From: a virus
Strand: one strand, 5' to 3'
IMG/VR virus record: IMGVR_UViG_3300023184_004167
Coordinates: 62,001 to 126,000 of that record
DNA length: 64,000 nt
This document shows, in pieces, positions 27,401 through 44,343 of the stretch. Positions within the stretch are counted from its first letter, which is position 1. Each line of letters starts with the position of its first letter. The position numbers and the translations under genes are program-made. The notes under the pieces were generated by a model. That model did no database searches. It worked only from the letters and a program-made list of their open reading frames with translations, and was not told where the DNA came from.

Positions 27401-30400
27401 TTGATTTGATAATTTATATGGTGATAAATTTTCTCCTGTTCCAATTATTTCATTTAAATAAGATTCTGTGTCAGGTTTTACTATTTGTGTGTCATCAAAA
27501 TAACCATAGTTAGGTGCCGCCCAAAGTGTTCTCATTGAACCATTATAAACTGATGTATTTCCCGTTATTGAATAACCAGGAAGAACTGATTGAGCGGTTG
27601 TTAATGGTGGCACTGATGTAAATGTTACCAATGAATCAACAACTTGATTTTGTGAGCCCCCAAAAGAAGGGACAGTATAATACCCTGTATTACTTGGATT
27701 TGGTATTAAAACCGACCAAGTAACATATCTTAATGGAACATTATTTTGACTTATGTTTAAATTTGATTGTGTAAAGTTATATAACTTTACCCCCCCATTA
27801 ATTGTGTTTTGTATCTCTGCATCACTATATGTAGAATACAAATCAATCCCATTAAAAAAGTAATTAAAATCATTTATTAGTTTTGGATAAAACCCTGATT
27901 GTACATTAATCCCCGCAGAACTACTTGATTCAAGTTGAATTGTATTTCCCGTTTGTCCATTAAAATCTAAAGTATATATTTTACTTGGGTTGTTTGTTAT
28001 TGGGTCAAAACTTTTTTTATAATCAACACTTTTCCAAATTTTTGTTAAAAAGTCAGGGTTACCAGATTTTGATTGTTTGTATCTATACCAAATAGAACCT
28101 ATCTTTAAAATCCAAGCGTATGGTAATTTATGTATTGCACCAAATTTCTTCAAAGATGCAAACATATAATCAAGTTGATTTAACCCTGTTGATTCTGTTT
28201 TATATCTTTCCCTTAATGACATTAAAGGTAATGAGTTTATAAAAAGATATGCCGCTTCAACAAATGGTAATTCATTTTTATTTTTCATTTTAGCAACACC
28301 CTCAGAAATTGCATTTACAAAAAATGGTGTATTAAGAATAGAAGTTGTTGTTCTTATTGGTAATTTGCCCGACAACGCATTAAAAATTGTTGTTGTTTTA
28401 TTATTTGGGACATCAAAATAACAATATCCTTCCGTAGGTAAAAAAGACTTAGGAAATCTATTATAATAAAAATTAATTAGAAACCCAGATTGATTAGTTG
28501 ACGAATATGCCTGACTTAATGATAACGGGTTTTGTATATTATTATAAGAGAAATTAGTTACAGGTCTGGTTTGAGTATAGTTATTTAACTCAGTAAAATT
28601 AGAAATAATATCCCTTTGTTTATATATCTTTAACACTTTTGTTGTGTTATATGGATTACCAACACTAACATTATTATCAATAAGATTTGCTGTCGCCCAC
28701 GTAGAATTTGTAAACGGATATAAATCAGTTATGTTTGGTTCGTTTGTTTGTGTTGATTTAACAATGCTTTCCAACTTTGTGCTGTCAACATTTGTTGCCG
28801 GTTCTTTACCAATATCATCAACATTTAATATTGCAAAAGATTTTTTTGTATAACTTTCAATATATGATGTAACAAAAATGTCTTTAATGAAATCTATATA
28901 TGATTGTCCTGAACCATTATTTGATATTTCCTTTAAAAAAGTAACATAGTTAGCTGCAGTATATTTTAAATTCTTTAATTTAGTATTTAAATACGGATTA
29001 CTAACACCCAAAGATGTTAAAAGGTTTTTAGATTCTACCCTAATAATTAATTTAATTAACTCATTATACTCAGCATCACCATTTTTAAATCTACTTAAAT
29101 TATCATATCTAGAAGTCATAAATTGTCTTTCCCATATCTCATAAAAAAACTTAACTTCTTCTTTATTACTATAAGCAATATCCGATTGTGGAAATTCTAT
29201 TGCATTTATATTAATGAAATCTGTGAATTGTTGTATATTTGTATCATCTGATGAATTTGGTTCGGTATATTTTTGAGTTAACCCTTTAATGTATTCCTCA
29301 ATAAATTCTACCTCTGGCCATTTATCATACAAATAACCTTTTGTTAAATTAACAACTGTCGGGTCTCCAATATATTTTAATTGGTATTTTCCTTTTTTAT
29401 CATCCCCAAGTTGTTCAAAAAAGAATTGAGGCCAAGGATAAACAGGTGTTTGTAAAACACTAGTATTTGATGCGTTTTCTATTACATTTGGGACAACCAT
29501 CTTGGTGTCAGAACCTTGAACTGAAGACGGGTTATTTAATATTGCATTCTTTCTAACTATATCATATTTTACATCCCACGCCTTTGTATGTGTATCATCC
29601 AATAATCTAATAAACCCTTCTGCAGAAGCCATAATAACACCAACAATATTTCTAACGGTAGGAACAAATCCTATTCCTGTTTTTGAATCCCTTATTTTAT
29701 CGGCCAGTTGAGCAGAAAGTTTTGCCTCAGTTTCAGACAATACTTTACCTGCCTGAGCAACCATTGTTTGAACAATTTCATTAAATCTATTTGTTCCATC
29801 AAAAATATAAAAATATGGTTTTAAAAAAACCAAAACATTTGACGGATTGTCTTTATTAACAAATGGTGTTGGTCCACCAATTGTACCAAGAGCAGTTTTA
29901 AAACTACCTAAAGTTGCTGGTGTAAAAAGTTTAGTATATGATAATATTAATTCGTTAATCTGATTTAATGTTGGTTGAATTATTTGAGTTTGTTCTGCGG
30001 TTGTCCTTTCCCAATCAATATCCGCACTTGTTGTAATACCAGTCATATTAGTAACCGATATACCATTTGTTATTTTTGATGGTCCGTCTTTTCCTAATGT
30101 TGGGTTGCTGTCTAAAACCTCATTATAATCTTTTATAATACCTTCCAACGCAGTTTCTGCTGTAGGTTTTTCTGTGTCCAAAAACTCATTTTTATATGCG
30201 TAATACCTTTTTCCTGTATTTTTTTCAATAAATGGTTTTGGATTTAAATATTTCACAAACCAAGAATCAGAATCACCAATTACCTTTCCATACAACGCTT
30301 TTAATTTTTCTATATATGTTCTAATATTTGTTAATGGCTCAACATCACTTTTTGGAAAACTATCTATAATATTTTTTTCAAAGTTATCCAACTTTTTCAT

Positions 30401-31402
30401 TAGTTGTTGTAATGTAAGTTCTGGAAAATCTTTATCTATTAATCCCTTACTTTTATACTCACTATAAACTTCACGAATCTTTTGATACCCTCTTTCTGAA
30501 TACATTTGTTGCACAACCGCAGTTTTACTATTTGATGCGTTTGGTATATTTGCAGATTGTTGAGATGCCGCTGCCTGTTGACTGTCTGACGGCGCTTGAG
30601 AAGTATTTGAATTTGATATGTCAAATCTTGATGAAAACATATGGGGTGCCGCCAATAAATGACCCATAGAAATTTCATTCAAGATGTTAAACTTATAACC
30701 TTTTAGATTTAAAGTAATCTGATAATTACCACTCATTGAATTAAAACTCGCACTGAACTTTTCTAAATTGAGTTGATATCTTACCGCCTGTCCATAATAT
30801 CCTTTAATTGTTAAATAAAATGGGGGATATGGTAAATGAAAGAAAGCCGCATATGGAGAATTTTCTCCTAATTGAAATAATGCCCTCCCTTGAACATCTT
30901 CAAGTAATATTGTTACTGTTGGAATAAATGACCCAGATGTTTTAATATTAATACTTGTTATCCCTAATAAACCATTATCAATAGTTCCTTCTTTTCCGTC
31001 TGTAAGTGCTGTTAATTTTGTATACCCCTTATCCCCATTTGATGCTGGTATGTATTCAGATTGTGTTTGATTTGTACCCTTACCTTTTATTGAATTCTCA
31101 CCAGTTAATTCGTCATAATAATTTGTTGTGAGATAACCATCTTTTGTTGGATTAAGAAAATTAATTTTACCTATGGATACAGTTCTAATACTATCTGGAG
31201 AACTTCCAACCGCTAACTTTGTTCTAGGTAATAATTCCGCCTCAAGATTAGCAAACATAATTAAATTTTCATGGTCTACCAATCTCTCGGATATATTACC
31301 TTGACTATCTATAGTTTTGTTTGGGTCAACAATTATTATATTGTTATAATCAAACTCAGTATATACTTTTCCGCTTTTGTCTCCTTGGATGTTACCTACC
31401 AT
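24422..31402 (-). CDS. Giant baseplate hub protein
   Basis: A 2326-residue protein, the longest in the window. The N-terminal 270 residues (TVTILLEDVQGRALFQLGEN, PPFYLTIKGYYGQ, FNSMSGNYQITLNLKGYKF) look like a phage hub beta-domain. Near residues 1870-1935, YFNLRHVPMFNGPYLITDVSH followed by SPGQFQTTFNGTRQG resembles the end of gpD/gp27-type hub proteins, which form the trimeric centre of the baseplate. Then come a Cys-containing helical domain, a short Thr-Pro linker (TPTPTPSPLP) and a C-terminal beta-sandwich. No lysozyme motif is visible. It overlaps the gp53-like gene by 11 bases. T4 gp27 is 391 residues, so this is greatly enlarged. Confidence 0.6.
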   Translation of the reverse strand: MVGNIQGDKSGKVYTEFDYNNIIIVDPNKTIDSQGNISERLVDHENLIMFANLEAELLPRTKLAVGSSPDSIRTVSIGKINFLNPTKDGYLTTNYYDELTGENSIKGKGTNQTQSEYIPASNGDKGYTKLTALTDGKEGTIDNGLLGITSINIKTSGSFIPTVTILLEDVQGRALFQLGENSPYAAFFHLPYPPFYLTIKGYYGQAVRYQLNLEKFSASFNSMSGNYQITLNLKGYKFNILNEISMGHLLAAPHMFSSRFDISNSNTSQAPSDSQQAAASQQSANIPNASNSKTAVVQQMYSERGYQKIREVYSEYKSKGLIDKDFPELTLQQLMKKLDNFEKNIIDSFPKSDVEPLTNIRTYIEKLKALYGKVIGDSDSWFVKYLNPKPFIEKNTGKRYYAYKNEFLDTEKPTAETALEGIIKDYNEVLDSNPTLGKDGPSKITNGISVTNMTGITTSADIDWERTTAEQTQIIQPTLNQINELILSYTKLFTPATLGSFKTALGTIGGPTPFVNKDNPSNVLVFLKPYFYIFDGTNRFNEIVQTMVAQAGKVLSETEAKLSAQLADKIRDSKTGIGFVPTVRNIVGVIMASAEGFIRLLDDTHTKAWDVKYDIVRKNAILNNPSSVQGSDTKMVVPNVIENASNTSVLQTPVYPWPQFFFEQLGDDKKGKYQLKYIGDPTVVNLTKGYLYDKWPEVEFIEEYIKGLTQKYTEPNSSDDTNIQQFTDFININAIEFPQSDIAYSNKEEVKFFYEIWERQFMTSRYDNLSRFKNGDAEYNELIKLIIRVESKNLLTSLGVSNPYLNTKLKNLKYTAANYVTFLKEISNNGSGQSYIDFIKDIFVTSYIESYTKKSFAILNVDDIGKEPATNVDSTKLESIVKSTQTNEPNITDLYPFTNSTWATANLIDNNVSVGNPYNTTKVLKIYKQRDIISNFTELNNYTQTRPVTNFSYNNIQNPLSLSQAYSSTNQSGFLINFYYNRFPKSFLPTEGYCYFDVPNNKTTTIFNALSGKLPIRTTTSILNTPFFVNAISEGVAKMKNKNELPFVEAAYLFINSLPLMSLRERYKTESTGLNQLDYMFASLKKFGAIHKLPYAWILKIGSIWYRYKQSKSGNPDFLTKIWKSVDYKKSFDPITNNPSKIYTLDFNGQTGNTIQLESSSSAGINVQSGFYPKLINDFNYFFNGIDLYSTYSDAEIQNTINGGVKLYNFTQSNLNISQNNVPLRYVTWSVLIPNPSNTGYYTVPSFGGSQNQVVDSLVTFTSVPPLTTAQSVLPGYSITGNTSVYNGSMRTLWAAPNYGYFDDTQIVKPDTESYLNEIIGTGENLSPYKLSNQNKYTKIEELFSVFEKEILDTFEIEFLNFSKSEDNVTATPATKLNYGQSTGDNTIVFKNFQMLFKNLMVINAPQQGVTNETYFLSSINNQLDNFSSVLLKFLQYDVIFKYGNPSNYNRFIFDSFLSHSTFKSTANIGLALQQTAQLVNSGGLATPKIFEPYSQGSLPSVNGTTTLTQSMANYPNEWKQLELSVGFSTIPELQYKNTGSYITDFFIDNNIKFTQDNIISLSPLIKMYATQKLETPTLTSTQFNTALNTYLGVCNKLQNDTLEGILTAVKNQLPNYQEVPEKVIDSKVDGQQSKVDLYEAFKALNDKWIAGGDYKSKTFFEDILFLDRASRNIGDTLLLDIFTLKDLLNEKNLNLTTSVYTFIGGLLIHNNFTIMNLPAYVNFYNYQVKDGVESPIPGGGSSDFANNMWGTFTTVDYTNAGPKMVCFFVGRPASYVDLPESKNFLFRSDGIQLEKNSGNPLSEDPKGKKDYAKSNKCVGFTVDIGIRNQNVFSSFNVSQENGQGTAESTSTLMNMINQASGRETATQNVSLYNYYAQRSYGCQVISLGNAMIQPTMYFNLRHVPMFNGPYLITDVSHVISPGQFQTTFNGTRQGVFDLPAIDTFLQSINKNLLTKLEKAVLNGGEEKTNVVNNNLSNSTNATINANNTKAAENSCTTKVNQIYIDAKFESSGATESVINQKDLANKIKKATTDSNLQAIIYALCYIRTFKDNVFRGFNNNLAMITLVDNKYKTTYPTFFSKYYSCVNSEIQNGTQSLPIASFKDIDTFIGFMVSRLTPLVTKISSNIGIGQFYMCEWEDDNQIIPVSNYLATDKIPIFVLSRLDDGLKNAEKNGIIISNFNALLYGSNNAKMTPTPTPSPLPIVLPPTTNIFTIERITSNGNDNRIVVTISTNVGLWKIVSIRFNLASNSPCGGDGGALTSKISDQKWFMTPYQDALDSCSLRAQVSPGTYSFIYTVYADPILQNGQPDTTRQQKTTIITSNVII

Positions 31403-31715
31403 AGTAATAAAAATGATTATTTAATGCTCCTTTATAGTCTTGTAAAGAAGGTAGTAAAGGGAATGGGATAATCAACATAGCCCCGTCAGGAATATAATTC
31501 TCAAGTCCTCCGTATTGTGGGTTTGCTTGTAATATTAACCAACCAAAGAATGGCGTTCCGTAAGATTCTTGTGAAATTTTATCTAACCTACTTTTTCCTA
31601 CCTTATAAATGTATACTTTATCTGTTGTTTTTTGAGGTACTTGCACAAAAGGAACAACGGTTTGTTGCCCATTTATTAAAAAAGTACTATATCTATTATA
31701 ATATTGTAGTGCCAT
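31392..31715 (-). CDS. LysM-like baseplate protein (gp53 / tail protein X type)
   Basis: A 107-residue protein with a LysM-like core: DKISQESYGTPFFGWLILQANPQ, then IPDGAMLIIPFPL, the 'D-x-I-x-x-x-x-YG-x-x-W-x-x-I-x-x-x-N-P....I-x-x-G-x-x-L-x-I-P' pattern. Such modules occur in T4 gp53 (baseplate wedge) and in P2 gpX/tail protein X, which link the hub to the tube or wedge. Its ATG overlaps the stop of the 1678-residue gene by one base and its end overlaps the hub gene by 11 bases, consistent with coordinated hub assembly. Confidence 0.72.
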   Translation of the reverse strand: MALQYYNRYSTFLINGQQTVVPFVQVPQKTTDKVYIYKVGKSRLDKISQESYGTPFFGWLILQANPQYGGLENYIPDGAMLIIPFPLLPSLQDYKGALNNHFYYYGR

Positions 31716-34700
31716 TAGTTTAATTTTACTTTACATACAAGAATACCACTACTTGTTTGGTTTGACCAATCAGAAAAACTAGGGTATTGGTTAGTTGAAT
31801 TTCCTAACGCCTTTATTAATTCTTCTCTTCTTTTTTTAAATGGTGATTCACTTTGTCTATCAACATTTGTGTTATAAGTAAATTCATATTTTTTTATTTT
31901 TGCACCAGTAAATGGTGTAAAAATTAAATAATTTTTTAATTGGTTTTTTTCCATTTCAGTAAAAAAACTTTGTGTTATTGCATTTTCATTAACAAATAAT
32001 GTTTTTGCCGATGGGCTTTGTGTTGCATCTATTTTCCAATACGCATCAAATTGTGTTCCAATATCACTATCCCCACCCGCAAATAAAGACGGATTACTTA
32101 ATAAGTTTCCAATAATTTGTTGTTTAAATGTTGTATACTTTACATCATCAATAACATCTTGATTTAAGATAAAATAGCTTCTTTGAAAAGAAACATCTTT
32201 AAATTTTATTTCTCTTGAAAAAGGTACAAATACTTTATCTTCAGGAATTTTTTCAAATCCATAAACTAATACTCCATTATAATCTGTTGCTAAATGTTTA
32301 AATGTAATTTTTGTTTGGATTACTGTATTAAATTGTGTTATTGCACTAGCAATTTTAATTGAGTCTCCAGTAAGTTCCCGCAATGTGTCAGGATAAGTTG
32401 TGTCATTAACTTTAGTTGTTGGTAACGTAACATAAAGTTTAACAAAAGAATTTTTTTGTTGTAATCCATCAGTTCCTGAAACATTTTGTTGTCCAAAAGT
32501 TATTGCATTGTTTTTTGCAATATTTGTTATAAGATTTTGTTCTTGTATTACTAAGTCTTGTGTTAATTTAGTTAATGCACTCTGATAATTTGATTTCTTA
32601 GCTTTTATATAAGTTTTATAATTATCTTTAATTGTTTTTATTGCTTTTGATGTAAAATTTTTAGGATGTAGAGTAGTTCCTTTTATAAACTGAATAAATC
32701 CTTCTGTATCACTATCAATATCATTTATAAAATCATTAAAAATTTTATCCACACTTTGTTCAACATTTTTGGGTTTTCCGAAAAGTTTTGTTTTATCAGA
32801 TTTAGTATATAGAAACGCTCCATCAGTATAATTTCTTTCTTTATTCCATACTTGTCTAACAGCATTATTATACTGACTAACAACTTCTTTATTCTTATTA
32901 AAAATAGTTGTAAAATAGTTTTGTGTAGATAATAAGAAACCATTCATATACCCTTGATAATTTATAAATCCTGTTTCCCCTGATTGGGTTGTTGTTGCGG
33001 ATGTAATAACACCAATTGTTTGCCCATTTGATTGCCCATTATTATTTTGAACTTGGTTAACTGTTGGTGGTGGTACTTGTATATTAAAATAATCTAAAAA
33101 TTCTTTATCTAAAACTTTGTAACTAGTATCTGTAACATCCGCCCTATCGTCATACATCTCAGTATTAGCATAATAGTTAAATGTTAACGCATTCTGTAAT
33201 TTATCAACCGCTCCTGATAATCCCTGTCCTCCAACAAATTTAAACGACATTGTTATATTCGCAATCATAGGTTGAATACCAATTCCTTCAGGATTAATAT
33301 CTAAATTTTCATATGTTAGACCCAAACTATCAGGTATTATTTTGGTATGGAAAAAATCTCCGACACGTAAAATTAAGACAGGAGGTGTTCCAAACGCAGT
33401 ATTTGTTGCGTTATTATATTGTAAAGCACCATTTTTTTGAGTCACCGGTATTGTGTCACCAGGTCTTAAACATTGTTGTAAAAAAGTTAATCTTGAGTTT
33501 AGTCCTTCGGGTGTTGTTGAGTGAAAAGCGGGGTTAAAGAACTTTAATTTTTCTCTTAAATTGTCATACACCATCGGTGTCTCTTCTTTAATAGTTTCAA
33601 AATAATCACACTCAGATAGAAGTGAACGTAAAACTCTTTTTGTTATATTATCTCTTATTACTGTCTTTGTTACTTCTTCAGGTACTTGTGTAGTTTCTGT
33701 ATAATTTTCAGGTACATCAACATCTTGAGTTACTTTAGTACTTGCTTTTCCTTCAACGGTTGTTTTAGTATCTGGCGCAGATAGGGTACTAGTATCAATC
33801 TTTAATAAATAAGCCCTTCTACAAGCCATTGCCTTTGTTGTGTAAATATCGTGAGAACCAACAGCTCCTGTTTCTCCATTCTCATCACTACAAGAGTAAG
33901 AATTACTTGATTGCCATTGTCCTCCTGTATATTGTTGTACTTGTGCTCGGTCTATCTCCCCTTTGGGGACCTGGTTAAATAGTAATTTGTTATTTTTTAC
34001 GTGATTTTTAGTGTGAACATTTTCAGTAAAATAGGTTATTAATGAACCAATTCTTCTTTTAGATAACTCAACATTATATGTTTGTGACGCCGGAGCAGAA
34101 CAACTTGACGCTATTGTTAAACTAATTGTACCTTTATTTTCAGAATTAGATAATAATTTATCAATTTCTATCGCCAATTTATCCATATCTTGATAATTCG
34201 GTGTAATTACATTATTAAAGAAAGTATTTGATTCACTATTATGTGCAACATATCCTGCAACATTACTTGGTGCTGTATATCTAGCATATTCTATTGTATA
34301 GTTTTGAGTGTTGTTTCCTGGTTTTGGATAATCATTTCCAAAATAAACTCCTTTATTATTAAAGTCGTCAAGTGTTTTTATTGGTGTTTTGGTAGATGTA
34401 AAGGTATTGGGGGTTGCGTCTTCACCAGTTGTTACACTTTGTTTTACATATCTCATTCTTTCTGTTGAGACATCTCTATTCTGAATTTCTTTTTGTATTT
34501 CAAATAAATCATTTGGATTTACTGTATAGTATTTTTTTGCCAAATCATATAAATCATACTTTCTACATCCCGCAAAGAAAGATTCTAAGATACTATCAAT
34601 TCTAACTTTGTTAGTTTCATTTGCCAAAACTTTATTAACAATAAGATTTAAAACAGATGGATGGTCAACAACAATTTTCCAAGTTAAACTTCCCGTTCTA

Positions 34701-36751
34701 CTTGTATTGTTATAAGTATAAACAGGTTCAGGTCTTCCTAAAAAATCAGTGCTTTTCCAATTAGCACTTGATGTTTCATTAAAGGTTAACCCATATGGTG
34801 GAAACCACATAACTCTACCCCCATTTGGACCTCTTTCACATACAGGTAAATCAGTTACAGTATAACCAGGTCTATTTGATGTTCTCCAAGCCAAATTTTC
34901 TATTGAGAACATATACTTTTTAGCATACTCCCCATTTACCCCTCCCATCACTAAATTAGTTGAATCTTGTCCTCCCTCTCTTTTATTGGGATACATATTC
35001 AAATTATATGTCTTATCTAAAACGGAATAACTAAATCTTCTTCCTTCCGTTGTCATCCCATCAGTTTTTTGTAAATCATTGTATTGGAGATATGGTGTAT
35101 CTTTTGCAAAAACTCTGCAATATTCAGCCCCTTTCTCTTGTCCTATATCACCGACATAGGTTAATACTCTAGAACCCTTTGTAAGTTCTCTATAACCATC
35201 GTGAAACACTTTGCTGACTTGGTCAATAGCATTACCCACATGCTGTAATCTTTTACCTCCTTGAGGTTGACTATTGATTAATCTTTGTGTGTCATCTAAT
35301 ATTGAACCTGTCTTAAACGCAATGTTTGTAGATTCTGTTGGAGCGTATGATGATTCTTTAAAATCTGAATCTTCTTTTACAATCTCCCCACCTACACCTA
35401 CTTTTTTACCTGCATTGTTTTTATACTTTGGTGAAACCCAAGTAAGTCCTCCCTCAACGCCGCCACCATCACTATATGTTGGACCGTTAGCGGCTAATCT
35501 AATCTCTTTACTAGGTCCCTCATATAATTGAGCCAATTCAACCGGACCAAATACAGGTGATTGAATTTCTTTACCAAACTCATTTACAGGTAATGATTTA
35601 CTTGGTGAGAATATTCTTGAAGGTTCTGAAGTTGTTGAACCAATATAATAATTACTATTATTAGTTTGGGTTCCAACAATTGCTCCCGCCAATCTATCAA
35701 ATATGTTTCTATCGTACCCCGGTTTATATCTATTATAATCAAGATTACCAAATAATCTTGATTTTTGTCCAGCACCTGTATTGTTTAAAAATAATTGTGA
35801 ACCATTTTTACCCGTTCCTAAAAGTGTTGATAAAATTTGTCCTACTGCTGTCTGTCCCGCAGTATTATTATAAGCATTTTGTAATTGTTGTATTGTTGTT
35901 GGTTGTCCAGGATTAATACTTGCATCAAAGTATGAACCCGGTATTGGTGATACGGGTATTGTACTTCCCGCTAATCTTAACGCAAAGTCAGCGGCAGCAA
36001 TAATAGGATTAGAAGGTACGGTAATTTGATAGTTAGGTTGAATTAAAGGTATTTGTCCTGTAACCAATCCTAACACATCTGTTCCACTATTTGCATTTAA
36101 TATATTTGCCCTTCCTACTGTTTGTCTTCTTATTTCTCTAGCAATCCTTTCTTGAAACTCAACTCTTAAAACTTTGGCACCTAACCGAGCAATAAACGAA
36201 TCTTGACTTAAAAGTCCATTACTACCTCCTGGGTTGGGAGATAAAAGAATCGCAGCCGGACTATAAAAAGATGCAACAAAAGTTGTTGGATAAGGTTGAG
36301 CGTTTCCTGTTCTTCCTTGATTTATCTGTAATATTTCTAAACTTGAGAAATTTACCGCTGAATCTATAACACTATTTCCCGCACCATTACCATAAGCATT
36401 AAGTATTTTCCAATGTGGTGCTTCTTGATATGCTTCTTGTATTAAATTGGCGTCTTGTACACCATATTCCCCTTCATTTGAGTTTGTGTTTTGTAATGTA
36501 TTTGGGTCTCTTACTTGTTCATATCCTCCATCAGCACCATATTGGTTTAATGGATATAATCTATTTGCAAATGTTGGTTGGTCAATTAAGTCATCAGGAC
36601 TATCTATTACGCTATAATTAGATTGAATTATTTCAAAATTAATTGGGGGCGTCGCCCTATTTGGTGACTTAGCATAAGGTGCCAAGTTCCTAACCATTAG
36701 TCTATTTCTAAAAGTTTCTGTTGAAGGGAAGTCTAACGGACTATTAGCCAT
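31715..36751 (-). CDS. Large baseplate/tail protein with OmpA-like segment
   Basis: A 1678-residue structural protein between tape measure and LysM-like protein. Around residues 650-750, FLGRPEPVYTYNNTSRTGSLTWKIVVDHPSVLN resembles the tail-tube initiator or baseplate proteins of T4-like phages. Around residues 870-930, ISLTIASSCSAPASQTYN followed by LSKRRIGSLITYF fits the OmpA-type peptidoglycan-binding fold (beta-strand, then the 'N-x-x-LS-x-x-R' helix). The N-terminus (LDFPSTETFRNRLMVRNLAPY) looks like an assembly peptide. TATTTAT lies 16 bases upstream. Assignment to a specific T4 gene (48 or 54) is unsafe. Confidence 0.6.
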   Translation of the reverse strand: MANSPLDFPSTETFRNRLMVRNLAPYAKSPNRATPPINFEIIQSNYSVIDSPDDLIDQPTFANRLYPLNQYGADGGYEQVRDPNTLQNTNSNEGEYGVQDANLIQEAYQEAPHWKILNAYGNGAGNSVIDSAVNFSSLEILQINQGRTGNAQPYPTTFVASFYSPAAILLSPNPGGSNGLLSQDSFIARLGAKVLRVEFQERIAREIRRQTVGRANILNANSGTDVLGLVTGQIPLIQPNYQITVPSNPIIAAADFALRLAGSTIPVSPIPGSYFDASINPGQPTTIQQLQNAYNNTAGQTAVGQILSTLLGTGKNGSQLFLNNTGAGQKSRLFGNLDYNRYKPGYDRNIFDRLAGAIVGTQTNNSNYYIGSTTSEPSRIFSPSKSLPVNEFGKEIQSPVFGPVELAQLYEGPSKEIRLAANGPTYSDGGGVEGGLTWVSPKYKNNAGKKVGVGGEIVKEDSDFKESSYAPTESTNIAFKTGSILDDTQRLINSQPQGGKRLQHVGNAIDQVSKVFHDGYRELTKGSRVLTYVGDIGQEKGAEYCRVFAKDTPYLQYNDLQKTDGMTTEGRRFSYSVLDKTYNLNMYPNKREGGQDSTNLVMGGVNGEYAKKYMFSIENLAWRTSNRPGYTVTDLPVCERGPNGGRVMWFPPYGLTFNETSSANWKSTDFLGRPEPVYTYNNTSRTGSLTWKIVVDHPSVLNLIVNKVLANETNKVRIDSILESFFAGCRKYDLYDLAKKYYTVNPNDLFEIQKEIQNRDVSTERMRYVKQSVTTGEDATPNTFTSTKTPIKTLDDFNNKGVYFGNDYPKPGNNTQNYTIEYARYTAPSNVAGYVAHNSESNTFFNNVITPNYQDMDKLAIEIDKLLSNSENKGTISLTIASSCSAPASQTYNVELSKRRIGSLITYFTENVHTKNHVKNNKLLFNQVPKGEIDRAQVQQYTGGQWQSSNSYSCSDENGETGAVGSHDIYTTKAMACRRAYLLKIDTSTLSAPDTKTTVEGKASTKVTQDVDVPENYTETTQVPEEVTKTVIRDNITKRVLRSLLSECDYFETIKEETPMVYDNLREKLKFFNPAFHSTTPEGLNSRLTFLQQCLRPGDTIPVTQKNGALQYNNATNTAFGTPPVLILRVGDFFHTKIIPDSLGLTYENLDINPEGIGIQPMIANITMSFKFVGGQGLSGAVDKLQNALTFNYYANTEMYDDRADVTDTSYKVLDKEFLDYFNIQVPPPTVNQVQNNNGQSNGQTIGVITSATTTQSGETGFINYQGYMNGFLLSTQNYFTTIFNKNKEVVSQYNNAVRQVWNKERNYTDGAFLYTKSDKTKLFGKPKNVEQSVDKIFNDFINDIDSDTEGFIQFIKGTTLHPKNFTSKAIKTIKDNYKTYIKAKKSNYQSALTKLTQDLVIQEQNLITNIAKNNAITFGQQNVSGTDGLQQKNSFVKLYVTLPTTKVNDTTYPDTLRELTGDSIKIASAITQFNTVIQTKITFKHLATDYNGVLVYGFEKIPEDKVFVPFSREIKFKDVSFQRSYFILNQDVIDDVKYTTFKQQIIGNLLSNPSLFAGGDSDIGTQFDAYWKIDATQSPSAKTLFVNENAITQSFFTEMEKNQLKNYLIFTPFTGAKIKKYEFTYNTNVDRQSESPFKKRREELIKALGNSTNQYPSFSDWSNQTSSGILVCKVKLN

Positions 36752-36808: not shown

Positions 36809-38530
36809 TTACCACCCCGCTTTTTTAAGATTTTGTCTTTGGTTTGCATCTAAATTTAAGAATGTTTCATAAACTTTTGATTTAAAATCTGAACTATTTA
36901 ACCAATTTTCAAAATCTTGTTTGTTTGTTCCTGGAGGGGCATCTACCTTAAAAGTTACAACCCCTCCAAAATCAACTTTTTGAGTTAACCCTTTACTACT
37001 TGCAGATAGTGTTCCTGAAGGTAGTTTTGATTTAACTCTAGTTTCATCATAAATTAATTTTTTTGCCCTTTCTTCTATTTTAGCGGCAACTGTTTCAAAT
37101 CCACCTGTAGCATTATTTTTCAAATTAGTGATTTGAAGTTTTATATTTTCTATTGCTGCTTGCGATTCGGGTCCACTCATATCTCCTTTATTATTTATAA
37201 ATTCTTTTAATAAAGTTGATAAATTATCAACACTTTTTGTCACTTCAGGTCTAATGTCAGAACTCTTAGGAACCGCATTATATATATCATTCATTGATTG
37301 TGTACTAAACTCTCTAATATTTTCACTAAGTTTTTTTACTTGGTCAGCACTAACAACACCATATTCAAGTCCACTTCTCATTGATACAAGTGTAGACACA
37401 ATTTGTTTCTGAGCATCTAATTGTTCTGTTGCCAATTCTTCCATTGTTAACTCGCCTTTCTCTTTTTGTTGTTTAATAAGCAAATTAACCTGTTCTTGAG
37501 TTAAATCAGAAAGTTTCTTTGTCTCAATTTTACCATCTTCATCTTTAATATTAACTTCATATTCACCTTGTGTATTCATTTTGGAAATACTACCAAGAAG
37601 TTGTTTATCTTCTTCACTTTGAAAATTAATACTTGGTTTTAATTCACCTAACGCTTTATCTAAATTTGCAACAGCCAACGCTGATTTTGCTAGATTGTCA
37701 TAACTCATATTTGTTTGTTTAGCCAATTCCCTCATTTGCAGAATCCCCATAGGGCTAATTTTAAAACTCTTTGTCTTCTCATCAAACTCAGTATATTGTT
37801 TTGTCATCCGAGCCAAACTCTCTTGTAATCCTTTCGGGTCATTCAAAGACATATTCATCAACTGAAATGGGTCATTTAATTCCCCTGATGCAACCCCCAT
37901 TCTTTGAAACGCTGATGCCATAGCCACCGCAGCATCTGGGTCTAAAACTTTGTCGGCAAACCTCTGAGTTTCACTCATATCAAATTTTAAAATTGATGCG
38001 TTTGCCGCCATTTTTGTTAACCCTTGAACTCCTCCCTCAAAATTAAATTGATTCATCAAAGACATATTTCTAACAACATCCCCCATTACTTGTTTAGAAT
38101 TTAATCCCAAATTTTGGACATAATTAATCGCGTGTTCCATTTGTGGTCCAATTTGAGAAAATTGAACTCCTACATCTTGAAACCCTTTTACAAGACTATT
38201 AGTACTTAAATCAAGAACTTTATTTATAGAGTATAATTTTGCTGCGTCTTCTTGACTGGCGATAACATTTCTTTGAGTTGCTTCTGATACATCTTTTAAT
38301 ACATTAAAAGCATCATTAGTTGTTCCGCCTAATTTTTCAATCGCTGGTATGGTATCCGCAATAGCATTTTGTATTTCTTGTATTCTTTGTCTATTCTGAG
38401 TAAATACATTATTTAAAGCTGTTGCGTTTCCTGTCATTTCTCTATATGCGTGCTCAAAGTCAGGCATAAGTTCTTTAAACTTATCTAAAAATTTTTGTAA
38501 TACGCTTGTTTCATCATCTGCTGGTGCCAT
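36809..38530 (-). CDS. Tail tape measure protein
   Basis: A 573-residue, largely helical protein that sets tail length and occupies the tube lumen. Long amphipathic stretches (ATALNNVFTQNRQRIQEIQNA, DVSEATQRNVIASQEDAAKL) and repeated Met/Ala/Gln helices are typical of tape measures. It follows the tube, gp26-like and frameshift-ORF genes, the standard position for this protein. Its length is near T4 gp29 (590 residues); at the usual 0.15 nm per residue this implies a tail of about 85 nm. A terminator and then TATTTAT lie immediately upstream. Confidence 0.8.
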   Translation of the reverse strand: MAPADDETSVLQKFLDKFKELMPDFEHAYREMTGNATALNNVFTQNRQRIQEIQNAIADTIPAIEKLGGTTNDAFNVLKDVSEATQRNVIASQEDAAKLYSINKVLDLSTNSLVKGFQDVGVQFSQIGPQMEHAINYVQNLGLNSKQVMGDVVRNMSLMNQFNFEGGVQGLTKMAANASILKFDMSETQRFADKVLDPDAAVAMASAFQRMGVASGELNDPFQLMNMSLNDPKGLQESLARMTKQYTEFDEKTKSFKISPMGILQMRELAKQTNMSYDNLAKSALAVANLDKALGELKPSINFQSEEDKQLLGSISKMNTQGEYEVNIKDEDGKIETKKLSDLTQEQVNLLIKQQKEKGELTMEELATEQLDAQKQIVSTLVSMRSGLEYGVVSADQVKKLSENIREFSTQSMNDIYNAVPKSSDIRPEVTKSVDNLSTLLKEFINNKGDMSGPESQAAIENIKLQITNLKNNATGGFETVAAKIEERAKKLIYDETRVKSKLPSGTLSASSKGLTQKVDFGGVVTFKVDAPPGTNKQDFENWLNSSDFKSKVYETFLNLDANQRQNLKKAGW

Positions 38531-38553: not shown

Positions 38554-38580
38554 GAACAAGGACTAAAAAATTAGTCCTTG
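38551..38580 (-). terminator. Terminator overlapping the end of the frameshift ORF
   Basis: Perfect 10-base stem CAAGGACTAA / TTAGTCCTTG with a 4-base loop, then TTCTATTT on the minus strand. The upstream arm contains the TAA stop of the frameshift ORF. Confidence 0.7.
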
Positions 38581-38756
38581 CTATTACTTTCTACCCATTT
38601 ATCTAAAAGATATCTCCGAATAAAAATCGGCATCCTTTCAAAATCAGAGTAAGTTATTTTTAATAATGTGTTTAAATAATAAAATTCATCAATTTGAGAT
38701 TTTCTATAATTAGAAGAAAGGGCGAAAAAAGTCCACCCCAAATCCGACGTTAATTG
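38571..38756 (-). CDS. Frameshift extension ORF of a tail assembly chaperone (no ATG)
   Basis: An open frame of about 60 codons between an in-frame TGA (38757-38759) and TAA (38571-38573), overlapping the 3' end of the gp26-like gene in the +1 frame. It reads WTFFALSSNYRKSQIDEFYY, then LLKITYSDFERMPIFIRRYLLDKW, a protein-like sequence with no ATG; only a TTG is available. A T6 run (38725-38730, codons TTT TTT followed by C) lies in the overlap, where a +1 slip from TTT to TTC would join the frames and give a 291-residue product. Its position between tube and tape measure is where tail chaperone G/GT pairs are made by frameshifting. Translation is inferred, not shown. Confidence 0.65.
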   Translation of the reverse strand, partial: QLTSDLGWTFFALSSNYRKSQIDEFYYLNTLLKITYSDFERMPIFIRRYLLDKWVESNSKD

Positions 38757-39447
38757 TCAGTTTCTCTCCTGATGGGGCTGTAATTTTTTTTGTTAAATCA
38801 AGTCTAGGTTCGTTTTCGTTCATAAACTTTCTAATATATTTAGAATCTGCAATCGGTAATTGCTCAACAAATTTTGCAATCTCGCCCATATCAATAGTTC
38901 CATTAACCTCAACAATTTCTTTTTGTAGTCTCATTGTAACTTTTGGCGGAACTCTACCCAAAGGATATGATTCAATTGTTTTATTTATTAATACTGTATC
39001 ACCATTTGTTAATGGTTTTAATTTTATTGTTGTATTACTTTTTGGTAAAAGTACCGTAAATGTTCCGTCTGGGTTTGGGTCAATTCCTTTTATTAAAGGT
39101 AATTGGTCCAATAAAACATCAACTTTAAATTCTTTCTTTGTTACCGGGTCTATTGCTGTAACAGTAATTTCAGGCCCGAATGAAGTATTTCTTAAAAAGA
39201 TTAAGATTGCTTCAATATCTCCCTCTAACATATCCTCCACTTTAAAGTCGGGTTCATATATTTTTGCCCTTAATAAATTTGTTGCAATGTCTCCCCCACC
39301 TAATAAGATATTCTCATCCATTGCAGTTAAATAACCAACTTTAATTGATTGTTTTTTATTTTTATAAAACACACCCCCAGATGGTAAAGGTACCACATCG
39401 TGGGGAAGAGTTAAATTTTGTTGTCCGTATTGTCTTGATTCGTCCAT
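38710..39447 (-). CDS. T4 gp26-like baseplate family protein, likely tail assembly chaperone
   Basis: A 245-residue protein resembling the T4 baseplate (gp26) family of T4-like phages: LPHDVVPLPSGGVFYKNKK, then LTAMDENILLGGGDIATNLL and DIEAILIFLRNTSFGPE. The family N-terminus 'LPS-G-x-Y' and 'T-x-x-DE-x-L' is clear. Residues 1-241 could be joined by frameshifting to the downstream ORF. It lies between tube and tape measure. A hairpin that ends the tube transcript lies in its leader; a TATTTAT copy at 39568-39574 is 121 bases upstream, so its own promoter is uncertain. Confidence 0.75.
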   Translation of the reverse strand: MDESRQYGQQNLTLPHDVVPLPSGGVFYKNKKQSIKVGYLTAMDENILLGGGDIATNLLRAKIYEPDFKVEDMLEGDIEAILIFLRNTSFGPEITVTAIDPVTKKEFKVDVLLDQLPLIKGIDPNPDGTFTVLLPKSNTTIKLKPLTNGDTVLINKTIESYPLGRVPPKVTMRLQKEIVEVNGTIDMGEIAKFVEQLPIADSKYIRKFMNENEPRLDLTKKITAPSGEKLTINVGFGVDFFRPFF

Positions 39448-39585: not shown

Positions 39586-40074
39586 TTAGTAAACCAATAC
39601 ACATCTATCCATTCTTAAAGTTGCTGTGATTGTTGCCAAAGCATCTGATTTGTAATCCAAAGTATTGAAGTTCACATCAGTTAAGAATGTACCATACAAT
39701 ATCCACTTTTCAACAACTACACCCGTTGGGTCCAACATCTCCAAGTCAATATCTTTTTTATATCCTGCAGCATAACCCATTCTACCTGTAACAGATTCTG
39801 CGTGTAAACGAACCCACTCCATAAGAGCTTGTGCAGCTGAAGGCCCAATTGGGTCTCTAAAGGTCACGTTAATTGTTTGCCAGTTAAATCTACCTGCAAC
39901 CCACGTTGATGTATTTAAGAATTGAATCTCAGTTGCAGCAATTGATATGTGAGGTCTAGATGAACTCTCAATAAACCACTCATTGATACCTAAACTTGAA
40001 GGAAACCTTAAAATGAATCGGTTCTGTCTTTTCGGTTCATAAGGTATGGGCATTTTCATTAATAAATCAGCCAT
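39586..40074 (-). CDS. Tail tube protein, T4 gp19-like
   Basis: A 162-residue protein that polymerises into the inner tail tube. It has the tube-family N-terminus (PIPYEPKRQNRFILRFPSSLG), the mid-strand VAGRFNWQTINVTFRDPIGPSAAQALMEWVRLH, and the end strand DALATITATLRMDRCVLVY. Its length equals that of T4 gp19 (163). It lies two genes downstream of the sheath, with its own TATTTAT 35 bases upstream and a terminator downstream, as expected for a high-copy protein. Confidence 0.92.
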   Translation of the reverse strand: MADLLMKMPIPYEPKRQNRFILRFPSSLGINEWFIESSSRPHISIAATEIQFLNTSTWVAGRFNWQTINVTFRDPIGPSAAQALMEWVRLHAESVTGRMGYAAGYKKDIDLEMLDPTGVVVEKWILYGTFLTDVNFNTLDYKSDALATITATLRMDRCVLVY

Positions 40075-40230: not shown

Positions 40231-41061
40231 TTATTTATATTCTTTTTTAATACCTCCAGCTGTAGAATAAGTCTTAACTATATTATCCGGCTTGTTCTCA
40301 AAATGTTTCTTCATCGCTTCAACATTTCTAATATCATCATCAGAAAACCCTATTTTAGGCATTTTAGGAATAAATTTATTTCCCAAATCTTTTTTGATAT
40401 ATGCCTTTTTATTTAACAACGCTGACATCGCCCTAATATAAGATACAAATTCATCCATCGCCATAACCTTTGCTTGTTCAGGATTTTCAGCCCCTTTAAC
40501 ATCACCAAATGAAACGGGGTGGTATCTGTTAAGTTCTAAATAAGATTTAATTAAATCATTATCACTCATCTCACCCTCATCAGAAAAAGTTCTAAACTTC
40601 CTTAAGTTTTTAATCAATTGGTCTTTATCTATACCATTAAAATTTGAAATGATGTAGTTGTACACCCCTTGTTTTAAAGTCTCAGGATTGTGTCCCCTAG
40701 CCGTTACAATTGCAAATATTGAACCATTATTAATAGATTCTCTAAAATCATCAAATGCTGGTCCGGGAATTGCTCTCATTGCATCAACTAAAAATTGTTT
40801 ATCCCCCTCTACTCTAAAATTCCTAAAAGGATTTTCTGCATAACCTACAATAGTTTCCCCGTTATATTTAAAATCTTTTTTTCCAATGTCGTGTCTATGT
40901 TCCGCAAAATCCTCTGTTCCCATACCTACTTCATCCCCTTCACTATTTTTTAATATTATCTTTGTTGGCATTGAAACAATATTGTCATCCCAATCAAATG
41001 CATAATATTTCATATCTGGAGTACTTTCCTCATTAAAACCTTCTAAAATAAATCTTTTCAT
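40231..41061 (-). CDS. HAD-family phosphatase
   Basis: A protein of 276 residues from the chosen start (MKRFILEGFNEES). HAD motif I is YAFDWDDNIV (nucleophile D23 and D25), motif II is FAIVTARGHN, and the late acidic motif is SFGDVKGAENPEQAK. This is the phosphohydrolase fold used by phage nucleotidases and end-repair 3'-phosphatases; no kinase Walker motif is present. An ATG further upstream at 41100 would place the start in the stem of the sheath terminator (41071-41098), so 41061 is preferred. It sits between sheath and tube. Substrate unknown. Confidence 0.72.
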   Translation of the reverse strand: MKRFILEGFNEESTPDMKYYAFDWDDNIVSMPTKIILKNSEGDEVGMGTEDFAEHRHDIGKKDFKYNGETIVGYAENPFRNFRVEGDKQFLVDAMRAIPGPAFDDFRESINNGSIFAIVTARGHNPETLKQGVYNYIISNFNGIDKDQLIKNLRKFRTFSDEGEMSDNDLIKSYLELNRYHPVSFGDVKGAENPEQAKVMAMDEFVSYIRAMSALLNKKAYIKKDLGNKFIPKMPKIGFSDDDIRNVEAMKKHFENKPDNIVKTYSTAGGIKKEYK

Positions 41062-41065
41062 AAGT

Positions 41066-41098
41066 ACAAAGATAGGGGATATTTTACAACCCCCTATC
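41066..41098 (-). terminator. Terminator after the sheath gene
   Basis: Perfect 8-base stem GATAGGGG / CCCCTATC with a 12-base loop, 15 bases past the sheath stop, then TTTGTACTT on the minus strand. It overlaps the leader of the HAD gene, which may therefore be expressed weakly. Confidence 0.65.
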
Positions 41099-41112
41099 AT
41101 ATTTTAAATTTA

Positions 41113-44100
41113 TTATATATTCTCAAAAGACGCACCTGTTGGTGTTATCAAGAATTCAATATTGATAAACTCAAGTGCTCTTGTTGGCTTAAGATAAATT
41201 TTACCATTTAAAGTGTTTCTATCCAAATCTTCAGGTGAAGATGATACAGTCACACGGAAATCATACAAACCTCTATCTCTTCTAATTGCGTCTAATATTG
41301 GGTTAACACTATCCAAGAATTGTTGTCTAACTATTTGGTCGTTTTGTTCAAACAATAATCTAACAGCAACTGCGGATATTAATTTACGAGCCTGTAATAA
41401 CAATCTTCTAACATTTAATCTGTTAAGAGCTGAATCAGAAATTTGTAAAGTTTTATTACCCCATATTACTGTACCAACATCAGAGAAGGTTGCAATTGGG
41501 TTAATTCTACCTTGATACAAAGTATCTCTATCTTCTTGTGTTAATTTAAATCTTGCCTTAACTGAATTAACCAAACCTCTTGTATAACCCGCAGATGCGA
41601 ACCAAGGGAAAGCAATATTATCAGTCAATGCTAAATTTCTACAAACTTCACCTGTTGGTGGAAGATATATCTGTGTATTATTAACAGTATCTCTAACAAG
41701 AATCCAAGGGTAGTAAGTTGCAGTATAGTTAGAATCAATACCTGTTTGGTCTAAATTATCTACAGCTTCTTGTGGTAAAATATTATTTATTGAATCACCA
41801 CCATCAGGGGTATACATATCATAATCAGGTATTGCTGCGATATAAATAGAATCGGCTCTTTCATATTGAACCATATTAATTGCTGCTTCAGCCAAACTGT
41901 CGTGATTTACTATATCAATACTACCTGTTGCGAATATGTTAATATTTGTTGCTTCAGGATTTGCAAAGGTTTCAATACCTAACAAATATGCGTAAAAATC
42001 GGTGTTTGCGTAATCAACAGTATTTTGATTAACAACAATTGGTTTGAACATACCATCACCTGTTGCTGTTGGATATCTTGTATCAGGTGCCGCTCCATCT
42101 AAATAACCTAATCCACCAAGACGGAATCTTTGTTCATTAGTTCTAAATTCTCTATAAACATCCCATCCGTCAAAACCACCAGCAAAACATACTGTGAATT
42201 TTCTTGAATAGATAAAGTAATAAGGATTTGCTTGAGTTGATGGTTCACTATGGAAAGATGCAACACCACAATCAAATGCGGTTTCACCACTTGTATCATA
42301 TGAATTTGATATTGTAATAACAGTTGCTCCTGAATCCATATGGAAACCTCTTGTTTGATAATTCCAACTATCAGAGTCTGTAGCAGTTTCCCAACCAATT
42401 GTAGGATTTTGTTTACCTTTATATTGTAAGAATGAATCATCAACACCAAGTTTACTTGAGAAACCTAAATAAGTTCTTCTAATGACATCACCATTTGATG
42501 TAACAACATTTACACCACCTGAAGTACTTCCAAATGGAGGATTAAATACTGTTTCTCCTGGTATATTATAATGTGTTTTATAAATTGCTATTGGTGATGG
42601 ATTACTAGTATTAGAATAAACTCTTTGTGTATATCCGTGAAAACCACAAGGTAATGCATCAGCAGGATAATTGTCAGCCATTTCAACCATAATATATTTA
42701 GAAATTAAAGCGAACTCACCATTTGCAGTACCAATTTTTTTAGCAATAAAACTATTAGAATTAATATCTAAATTACAATTTGTAAATTTCTCAATTACCA
42801 CAGGATTAGTATCAGTATCATAAAAACTTCTTACTAATACATCAAAAGTTTGATTATTAAAAGAGATTCCCGCAATTGACACCTTAACTTCTGTATTTGC
42901 TGCGGTACCATCAGATATTGAAATAAATCTAAATAAATTAAAAACTTCAGTACCCCTTAGTTCAGAAACTAAGAAAGGTGTCATTGGTGTTGTATATTTT
43001 TCTAAATTCCAAGCAATTGATTGAGTACTTCTACTTCTTGCGTCAGGTAATGCAATTAAAGTACAATCTAAACCACGAATATATCCTTTATTATAAAGAT
43101 AATCCAAAGCACCTGCATAAATTTCTTCAACAAAAATAGGAACTTGAGTTCTTGATTTACCAAAATTATCCATTCCAAGTACTTTAGTTATAAACTTACT
43201 ACTTGATGCCAATAATGATGTCTCAAATGAGAATGTATTATTATCTTTAGTATAACCCGATAATAAGAATGTCGCAAAAGGACTTGATTGAACATATGAG
43301 TATTGGTCAGTACAAACCATTTGTAAATCATCTCCAATCCAATTACCAAAACTATCAACTCTACCAGGAACTTCATATTCAGGACCATGCTGTGTTGAAC
43401 TATATTCAGATATACCTCTTGAACGAAGAGTTGCAACAATTAAATTATTAATCCCCTCATATGCAGTACCTGAAAAAGTATAAGTATTACCTGTTATTGT
43501 TATTTGAAATGATGTTGATGTTGATGTACCCGTTGATAAATTTGTAACATTATAATTAAAAGAATATCCAGGATAAACAACTCCCGTTGTTAAATGAAAA
43601 TTAGAATAAAACCAAGAATCATTAGAACCTGCGGTTAAATCATTTGCATGCAAGTCTAAATCATCACAACCAAATACATTACTTAATATTGTATATTGTG
43701 ATGCCAAAACATTATAATCGGACTGAGGAATTGCACCATAAAAAATTGCGGTTGTTCCTGTTGTACTTGGTGTTAATGCGTATGATGTTAATACATTTAA
43801 AGTGTCAGCAGAATATGTAGAGACTGAACCATTTGCCAATCTATATTGAGTGTTATAATTAGATGAAACTTCAATTGGTAATGCACCACTTATAAGTTGA
43901 ATTGTATTTAAGGAAGTATCTCCTGTAAAAGTCGCTGTCCAAGGTGCTGTTGGTACTGAAGAATCAATACCTATTGTTGTACCATCAACATTAGCCGTTA
44001 CCCTCAAACTCCAAGAAGGACCCGCATCATATCCTGATAAACCAAGAATTCTTGTTACGAATAATTGATTAGATTGTTGAAGGTATGATTTAGCAATATA

Positions 44101-44343
44101 TGCCGCTTCATACTTAGGGATTTGAGTTCCAATAAATTTTGTTGGTTCTGTTCCGCCAAAAAACGCTTGGAATTCGTCATAATTTGTTATGAAGATTGGT
44201 TCAAATGCAGGACCCCTTAAGGTTTCACCTACCAGACCTAATGTTGTAACACCGACACTTTGAGCGACGAATGATAAATCCGTCTCTGAAGTATACACCC
44301 CGGGTGATACGAATACTTTTTGATTTACTTGAGTTGTTGCCAT
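41113..44343 (-). CDS. Tail sheath protein, T4 gp18-like
   Basis: A 1076-residue contractile sheath subunit. The N-terminus is diagnostic: VFVSPGVYTSETDLSF, then VGVTTLGLVGETLRGPAFEP and YDEFQAFFG. The C-terminus carries the sheath core (NGKIYLKPTRALEFINIEFLITPTG) and the preceding LDSVNPILDAIRRDRGLYDF, which forms the inter-subunit handshake. It is much longer than T4 gp18 (659), with the extra length in the middle, which on sheath structures forms surface-exposed protease-resistant domains. TATTTAT lies 35 bases upstream. Confidence 0.93.
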   Translation of the reverse strand: MATTQVNQKVFVSPGVYTSETDLSFVAQSVGVTTLGLVGETLRGPAFEPIFITNYDEFQAFFGGTEPTKFIGTQIPKYEAAYIAKSYLQQSNQLFVTRILGLSGYDAGPSWSLRVTANVDGTTIGIDSSVPTAPWTATFTGDTSLNTIQLISGALPIEVSSNYNTQYRLANGSVSTYSADTLNVLTSYALTPSTTGTTAIFYGAIPQSDYNVLASQYTILSNVFGCDDLDLHANDLTAGSNDSWFYSNFHLTTGVVYPGYSFNYNVTNLSTGTSTSTSFQITITGNTYTFSGTAYEGINNLIVATLRSRGISEYSSTQHGPEYEVPGRVDSFGNWIGDDLQMVCTDQYSYVQSSPFATFLLSGYTKDNNTFSFETSLLASSSKFITKVLGMDNFGKSRTQVPIFVEEIYAGALDYLYNKGYIRGLDCTLIALPDARSRSTQSIAWNLEKYTTPMTPFLVSELRGTEVFNLFRFISISDGTAANTEVKVSIAGISFNNQTFDVLVRSFYDTDTNPVVIEKFTNCNLDINSNSFIAKKIGTANGEFALISKYIMVEMADNYPADALPCGFHGYTQRVYSNTSNPSPIAIYKTHYNIPGETVFNPPFGSTSGGVNVVTSNGDVIRRTYLGFSSKLGVDDSFLQYKGKQNPTIGWETATDSDSWNYQTRGFHMDSGATVITISNSYDTSGETAFDCGVASFHSEPSTQANPYYFIYSRKFTVCFAGGFDGWDVYREFRTNEQRFRLGGLGYLDGAAPDTRYPTATGDGMFKPIVVNQNTVDYANTDFYAYLLGIETFANPEATNINIFATGSIDIVNHDSLAEAAINMVQYERADSIYIAAIPDYDMYTPDGGDSINNILPQEAVDNLDQTGIDSNYTATYYPWILVRDTVNNTQIYLPPTGEVCRNLALTDNIAFPWFASAGYTRGLVNSVKARFKLTQEDRDTLYQGRINPIATFSDVGTVIWGNKTLQISDSALNRLNVRRLLLQARKLISAVAVRLLFEQNDQIVRQQFLDSVNPILDAIRRDRGLYDFRVTVSSSPEDLDRNTLNGKIYLKPTRALEFINIEFLITPTGASFENI

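What the first reader, a model, noticed from the sequence alone, without database searches (positions are those of the whole stretch)
38571..38770. Probable programmed frameshift producing a tail assembly chaperone
Between tube/gp26-like protein and tape measure, a 60-codon frame with no ATG overlaps the gp26-like gene in the +1 frame. A T6 run gives TTT TTT C, where a slip from TTT to TTC (both read by the same tRNA-Phe) joins the frames at residue 241 and makes a 291-residue protein. Position and design match G/GT chaperones, but the +1 (or -2) direction is less usual than -1.
Basis: partly seen in the sequence, partly recalled or inferred. Interest (0 to 1): 0.72.

Follow-up and report, generated by a model that had tools for sequence, protein, structure and literature searches.

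The report
Phage tail chaperone with forward frameshift
This virus of bacteria very probably makes a short and a long form of a tail-building helper protein from one gene by letting some ribosomes skip one base forward at a run of T, a known trick that here runs in the less usual direction and is kept in nearly two hundred related sequences.

Summary
On the minus strand of a 138-kb phage contig, a T4 gp26-like gene (38710-39447) is followed by a 50-codon frame (38571-38723) with no ATG. Reading TTT-C as one step joins the two at residue 241 into a 291-residue protein. All 80 relatives with 65-79% identity in the upstream gene (31 sequences below 97% identity, window included) keep the second frame and the site. 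The second frame is under purifying selection (pN/pS 0.20, against 0.86 and 1.56 in the other frames). Synonymous variation in the whole gene is lowest exactly at the site. Internal starts, a -2 slip and T-run transcript slippage are not conserved across the family. Across the wider gp26/gp51 family, 182 of 182 +1 loci have TTT followed by C or T, and 88 of 88 -1 loci (cyanophages, KVP40 and others) have T-TTT-TTY. The same Phe-Phe motif is therefore used in opposite directions. T4 encodes the two forms as genes 26 and 51. The TTT-CGC +1 motif has been proposed for halovirus tail chaperones, so this is a new variant of a known kind. No protein evidence exists.

The parts
38710..39447 (-). TAC-N: short tail assembly chaperone, T4 gp26-like, 245 aa, ends VDFFRPFF-stop
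   Evidence: PF12322 T4_baseplate above curated cutoff; phrog_150 baseplate hub E 2.7e-14; AlphaFold model pLDDT 86.5 matching SP-15, Vibrio VH7D and Aeromonas phage 25 gp26 models
38725..38730 (-). Slip codons TTT TTT; the second TTT (38725-38727) is the inferred P-site codon that re-pairs with TTC
   Evidence: TTT at the second codon in 81/81 loci of the group; synonymous minimum of the gene
38724..38724 (-). The C skipped in the +1 shift, first base of the rare A-site codon CGC (38722-38724)
   Evidence: CGC is 5 of 19,825 codons in the window; reading TTTC as one step opens the fusion
38571..38723 (-). TAC-C: +1-frame extension, 50 codons plus TAA
   Evidence: Conserved in 80/80 relatives (one cut by contig end); pN/pS 0.20; profile similarity to the extensions of Firmicute phages and of the Flavobacterium-phage group, and through cyanophages to the T4 gp51 C-terminus
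38571..39447 (-). TAC-NC: predicted 291-aa frameshift fusion
36809..38530 (-). Candidate tape measure protein, 573 aa (by position and size only)
   Evidence: Directly downstream in the relatives checked; no family or profile match
39586..40074 (-). Tail tube protein (gp19-like)
   Evidence: phrog_4542 E 7.5e-28
41113..44343 (-). Tail sheath protein, 1076 aa
   Evidence: phrog_23 E 4.4e-58

Best explanation
This is a T4-type tail assembly chaperone cassette expressed by +1 programmed ribosomal frameshifting. Most ribosomes read TAC-N to its own stop. A minority, with tRNA-Phe (anticodon GAA) on UUU in the P site and a rare codon (CGC, CGU or CUC) waiting in the A site, slip forward one base onto UUC. 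They then read the 50-codon TAC-C and make TAC-NC. By analogy with lambda gpG/gpGT, TAC-N would coat the tape measure protein and the few TAC-NC molecules would recruit tail tube subunits. Shown here from sequence: both frames, their conservation, selection on the second frame and the invariant site. Inferred: the shift itself, its rarity, its mechanism and the chaperone roles.
For: Single in-frame TTTC gives the 291-aa fusion. 80/80 relatives keep the frame and the site. Selection on the +1 frame is strong. The synonymous minimum of the gene is at the site. 182/182 +1 loci have TTT|Y, including TTC TTT CGC/CGT/TGG and TTT CTA variants that isolate TTT|Y as the common element. The A-site codon CGC is very rare and no phage tRNA for it was found on the contig, only one tRNA-Met. 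One TAC-N and one TAC-C copy are found on the contig, so there is no sign of a separate gp51-like gene. The family is gp26/gp51 by profile and fold. A halovirus precedent uses the same TTT-CGC site (PMC7230728; sequence checked). The lambda model is as reviewed in PMC5009743.
Against: No peptide, reporter or ribosome-profiling data. No downstream RNA structure was found and no upstream stimulator was established, so the efficiency is unknown. 26 of 31 distinct relatives have an ATG nine codons upstream in the +1 frame, so internal initiation cannot be excluded in those. The tape measure identity is positional only. Much of the nucleotide invariance at the site follows from double coding and is not by itself proof of a slip signal.
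Confidence: 0.93

Rival explanations
1. TAC-C is a separate small protein started at an internal ATG or TTG in the +1 frame, with no fusion.
For: 26/31 distinct relatives have an ATG nine codons upstream in that frame and the window has a TTG at 38741. Two distant relatives (L097, L103) seem to encode the C-domain as its own ORF just after the stop.
Against: Four distinct relatives (L004, L006, L024, L037) have a +1-frame stop immediately before the slip site and no ATG/GTG/TTG before the conserved domain, yet keep the full extension. The same holds in most of the L088-L096 group. T4 gp51 carries the C-domain as one continuous protein.
Confidence: 0.04
2. The frames are joined by -2 ribosomal slippage or by RNA polymerase slippage on the T run.
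For: T6 is present in most of the group, and T-run slippage is a known way to join frames.
Against: L003 and Streptococcus phage GXN1 have TTC TTT CG, and the Flavobacterium-phage group includes AGC/ACN TTT CTT and TTT CTA: no long T run, and in the TTC TTT variants a -2 slip would put tRNA-Phe on TCT.
Confidence: 0.02
3. The second frame is a decayed or chance ORF, or the join is an assembly error.
For: None beyond the short length.
Against: 80 contigs agree, and selection is confined to the +1 frame.
Confidence: 0.01

Closest known systems
T4 gp26 / gp51 hub assembly chaperones (T4-like TACs; Vladimirov, Gautam and Davidson 2022, Virology 566:9, not held here, known through PMC10885494 and PMC12846349)
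   Same: TAC-N belongs to the same family (PF12322) and ends with the same Phe-Phe motif (T4 gp26 KEFFELL)
   Different: T4 encodes the short and long forms as two genes; here one gene with a +1 shift makes both. The signals cited from that paper are poly-T -1 sites.
KVP40 and cyanophage gp26 plus the small ORF annotated as hub assembly catalyst
   Same: Same family, same adjacent C-domain ORF, same Phe-Phe motif and U6C string
   Different: Phase of the string is T TTT TTC and the C-domain is in the -1 frame
HF1-group and HSTV-2 haloviruses (archaeal myoviruses; PMC7230728, PMC5009743)
   Same: Tail assembly chaperone pair, +1 shift, TTT-CGC motif near the first stop
   Different: TAC-N is shorter (156 aa) and shows no evident sequence kinship by eye (no formal comparison run); archaeal hosts
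UUU_CGN +1 sites of eukaryotic viruses (influenza A PA-X, amalgaviruses)
   Same: UUU followed by a CGN codon, +1, no stimulatory structure evident
   Different: Unrelated genes and eukaryotic ribosomes; the wider phage family also uses CUU, CUA, CUC, CAC and UGG after UUU
Lambda G/GT
   Same: Two forms of a tail chaperone from one gene, encoded upstream of the tape measure gene
   Different: -1 shift; no sequence kinship tested

Membership tests
Frameshifting tail assembly chaperone (G/GT, TAC-N/TAC-NC) | Gene pair between tail tube and tape measure genes | tested here: met
   Tube by PHROGs; tape measure only by position and size
Frameshifting tail assembly chaperone (G/GT, TAC-N/TAC-NC) | Downstream frame overlaps, lacks its own conserved start and is conserved | tested here: met
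Frameshifting tail assembly chaperone (G/GT, TAC-N/TAC-NC) | Conserved slip site in the overlap | tested here: met
Frameshifting tail assembly chaperone (G/GT, TAC-N/TAC-NC) | Fusion made as a minor product | not testable with these tools
   needs proteomics or a reporter
Frameshifting tail assembly chaperone (G/GT, TAC-N/TAC-NC) | Binds tape measure and tube, absent from virion | not testable with these tools
   needs biochemistry and virion proteomics
T4 gp26/gp51 chaperone family | PF12322 / phrog_150 profile match of TAC-N | tested here: met
T4 gp26/gp51 chaperone family | Fold match to gp26-like proteins | tested here: met
   (BFVD predicted structures); no PDB match
T4 gp26/gp51 chaperone family | C-domain kinship to the gp51 C-terminus | tested here: inconclusive
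   Direct comparison P 0.1; linked through the Flavobacterium-phage and cyanophage groups, P 6e-5 for cyanophage to T4
T4 gp26/gp51 chaperone family | Two separate genes as in T4 itself | tested here: not met
   One TAC-N and one TAC-C copy on the contig; the contig may be incomplete. This is a feature of the T4 group, not of the whole family (KVP40 and cyanophages lack it too).
UUU_CGN +1 frameshift sites | UUU in P site followed by CGN, rare A-site codon, no structure needed | tested here: met
UUU_CGN +1 frameshift sites | Shift demonstrated | not testable with these tools
   needs a reporter or mass spectrometry

The most novel reading that the evidence does not exclude
A conserved Phe-Phe motif at the end of the T4-type chaperone serves as a two-way frameshift pivot. 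In one set of lineages the U6C string sits in phase UUU UUU C (or just UUU Y) and ribosomes shift +1. In another set it sits as U UUU UUC and they shift -1. The direction has switched at least once in evolution. This would make the +1 class a large bacterial-phage set of UUU_Y frameshift sites, of a type described so far for eukaryotic viruses and haloviruses.
Probability: 0.7. Interest if true: 0.6.

Novelty: new variant of a known kind. Interest (0 to 1): 0.5.

Why it matters
[quoted passage not shown] A family of 182 loci in which UUU followed by a pyrimidine is the common element, set beside a -1 branch of the same gene with the mirrored phase, offers natural variants for testing what sets direction and efficiency. 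It also matters for annotation: the long form of a tail assembly protein is not annotated in the records examined, for example Flavobacterium phage immuto, Microcystis phage Mel-JY01 and Bacillus phage SP-15.

Tried and rejected
Downstream RNA structure: four relatives folded, z-scores between -0.31 and 0.63, nothing. An upstream Shine-Dalgarno-like stimulator was considered because a GGG codon four codons upstream is invariant in 31/31. It is not claimed, because a GGA fourteen codons upstream is equally invariant and the 7-codon windows there have ratios of about 0.6-0.8. Structure of the fused protein: the prediction tool does not accept the four-letter reading, so only TAC-N was modelled. 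PDB fold match: none. Related prophages in bacterial genomes to name a host: none found. Family hits for TAC-C alone: none convincing. Nucleotide search in the phage collection: no match. Paper searches for a described +1 case in T4-like tail chaperones found none.

Full report
Observation. On the minus strand the gp26-like ORF 38710-39447 ends ...GTG GAC TTT TTT CGC CCT TTC TTC TAA, and a frame shifted by +1 runs on to a TAA at 38571-38573. It has no ATG upstream of the shift, only a TTG at 38741. Reading TTTC as one Phe gives a single open protein of 291 residues with the junction at F241; this is the only in-frame TTTC in the gene. The window belongs to a 138,365-base virus contig.

What the genes are. 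The upstream ORF matches PF12322 (T4_baseplate, 37.7 bits against a cutoff of 24.5) and phrog_150. Its AlphaFold model (pLDDT 86.5) matches models of SP-15, Vibrio phage VH7D and Aeromonas phage 25 gp26-type proteins, with no PDB match. Profile comparison links it to KVP40 gp26 (P 1.9e-10) and, with KVP40 included, to T4 gp26 (P 2e-5). The tail tube gene lies upstream. A 573-aa ORF lies downstream; it is taken as the tape measure from position and size only. T4 gp26 and gp51 are listed as hub assembly chaperones (PMC3004832). Papers citing Vladimirov et al. 2022 describe T4-like tail assembly chaperones with short and long forms, made by frameshifting in some groups and by separate genes in others (PMC10885494 and PMC12846349).

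Conservation. A protein search of viral contigs returned 80 relatives at 65-79% identity. All keep the +1 frame open to the same end, apart from L067, which is cut by its contig end. All carry TTT at the slip codon followed by C: TTT TTT CGT 38, TTT TTT CGC 32, TTT TTT CTC 10, TTC TTT CGC 1, window included. In 31 sequences that differ by more than 3%, the region beyond the overlap has pN/pS 0.203 in the +1 frame against 0.858 and 1.558 in the other frames, with stops in 0/31 against 31/31 and 31/31. Synonymous variation across the gene is lowest in 7-codon windows centred one to three codons after the slip codon, at 0.03-0.11 of expectation. Because every third position of one frame is a constrained position of the other in the overlap, this minimum shows double coding and does not by itself prove a slip signal.

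Mechanism. In relatives L004, L006 and L024 the +1 frame has a stop just before the site, so the shift must happen within TTT TTT CGY CCT TTC TTC before the stop. Only TTT to TTC (or the first TTT to TTT) re-pairs without a mismatch. TTC TTT CGC (L003), TTC TTT CGT (Streptococcus phage GXN1), TTC TTT TGG (14 loci) and TTT CTA (L124, L146) remove the T run, which disfavours transcript slippage and -2 slippage, and leave TTT|Y as the common element. The A-site codon CGC is 5 of 19,825 codons in the window. The contig carries one tRNA gene (Met) and none for Arg. No RNA structure was found downstream.

Internal initiation. 26 of 31 distinct relatives have an ATG nine codons upstream in the +1 frame or close to it. 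Four (L004, L006, L024, L037) have no usual start codon before the conserved domain, and the window has only a TTG. Internal initiation is therefore not a conserved way to make the domain, though it cannot be excluded as an extra product in some.

The wider family. A Flavobacterium-phage-centred group (immuto type), the L088 group and the Firmicute phages SP-15, LIS04 and GXN1 are all +1. Cyanophages, KVP40, Atu_ph07 and a jumbo-phage group are all -1. TTT followed by C or T is present in 182/182 +1 loci and T TTT TTY in 88/88 -1 loci. These counts include near-identical contigs and are not independent events. Two loci (L097, L103) do neither and seem to encode the C-domain as a separate ORF just after the stop. 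On a TAC-N tree the -1 label needs two changes, of which well-supported branches force one; deep branches are weak and some are long. The window's +1 group lies in a 32-row clade (support 98/97) that holds 30 +1 loci and the two separate-ORF loci.

What is known. The reviewed lambda model has gpG coat the tape measure and gpGT recruit tube subunits, and states that such frameshifting is widespread except in T4 (PMC5009743). A +1 shift was inferred for HSTV-2 (same review). HF1-group haloviruses were proposed to use TTT-CGC (PMC7230728); I confirmed that site and frame in the HF1 sequence. The kind and the motif are therefore precedented. What I did not find described in the papers available is the +1 class in the gp26/gp51 family and the mirrored +1/-1 use of one Phe-Phe motif. 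The most relevant paper (Vladimirov et al. 2022) was not held, so prior description cannot be excluded.

Noticed in passing
L097 about 3209 and L103 about 3209: In these two distant relatives the +1 fusion frame is closed and the C-domain appears as its own ORF starting a few bases after the chaperone stop, which suggests loss of frameshifting in favour of separate initiation or another mechanism.
   Followed up: partly
L277 (Halophage HF1), TAC-N stop: AAG TTT CGC AGA TAG at the end of the first chaperone gene, with an open +1 frame beyond: the same slip site in an archaeal virus without evident sequence kinship.
   Followed up: partly
window 40231-41100, minus strand: 289-aa ORF between sheath and tube genes with only one weak PHROG match (phrog_31726, E 0.0013); an extra gene in the middle of the tail module.
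   Followed up: no
window 41113-44343, minus strand: Tail sheath of 1076 aa; the best sheath profile stretch is only the C-terminal part (residues 782-1074), so the N-terminal part is a long extra region.
   Followed up: no
window 24422-31402 and 31715-36751, minus strand: Two very long ORFs (2326 and 1678 aa) downstream of the tape measure candidate without any PHROG match.
   Followed up: no
window 61845-63518, minus strand: 557-aa protein with an HtrL_YibB domain (Pfam E 8.8e-18) and a weak match to a phage glucosyltransferase family.
   Followed up: no
window 38737-38739, minus strand: GGG Gly codon four codons before the slip codon is invariant in 31/31 distinct relatives although GGG is a minority Gly codon; possible upstream stimulator, not established.
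   Followed up: partly
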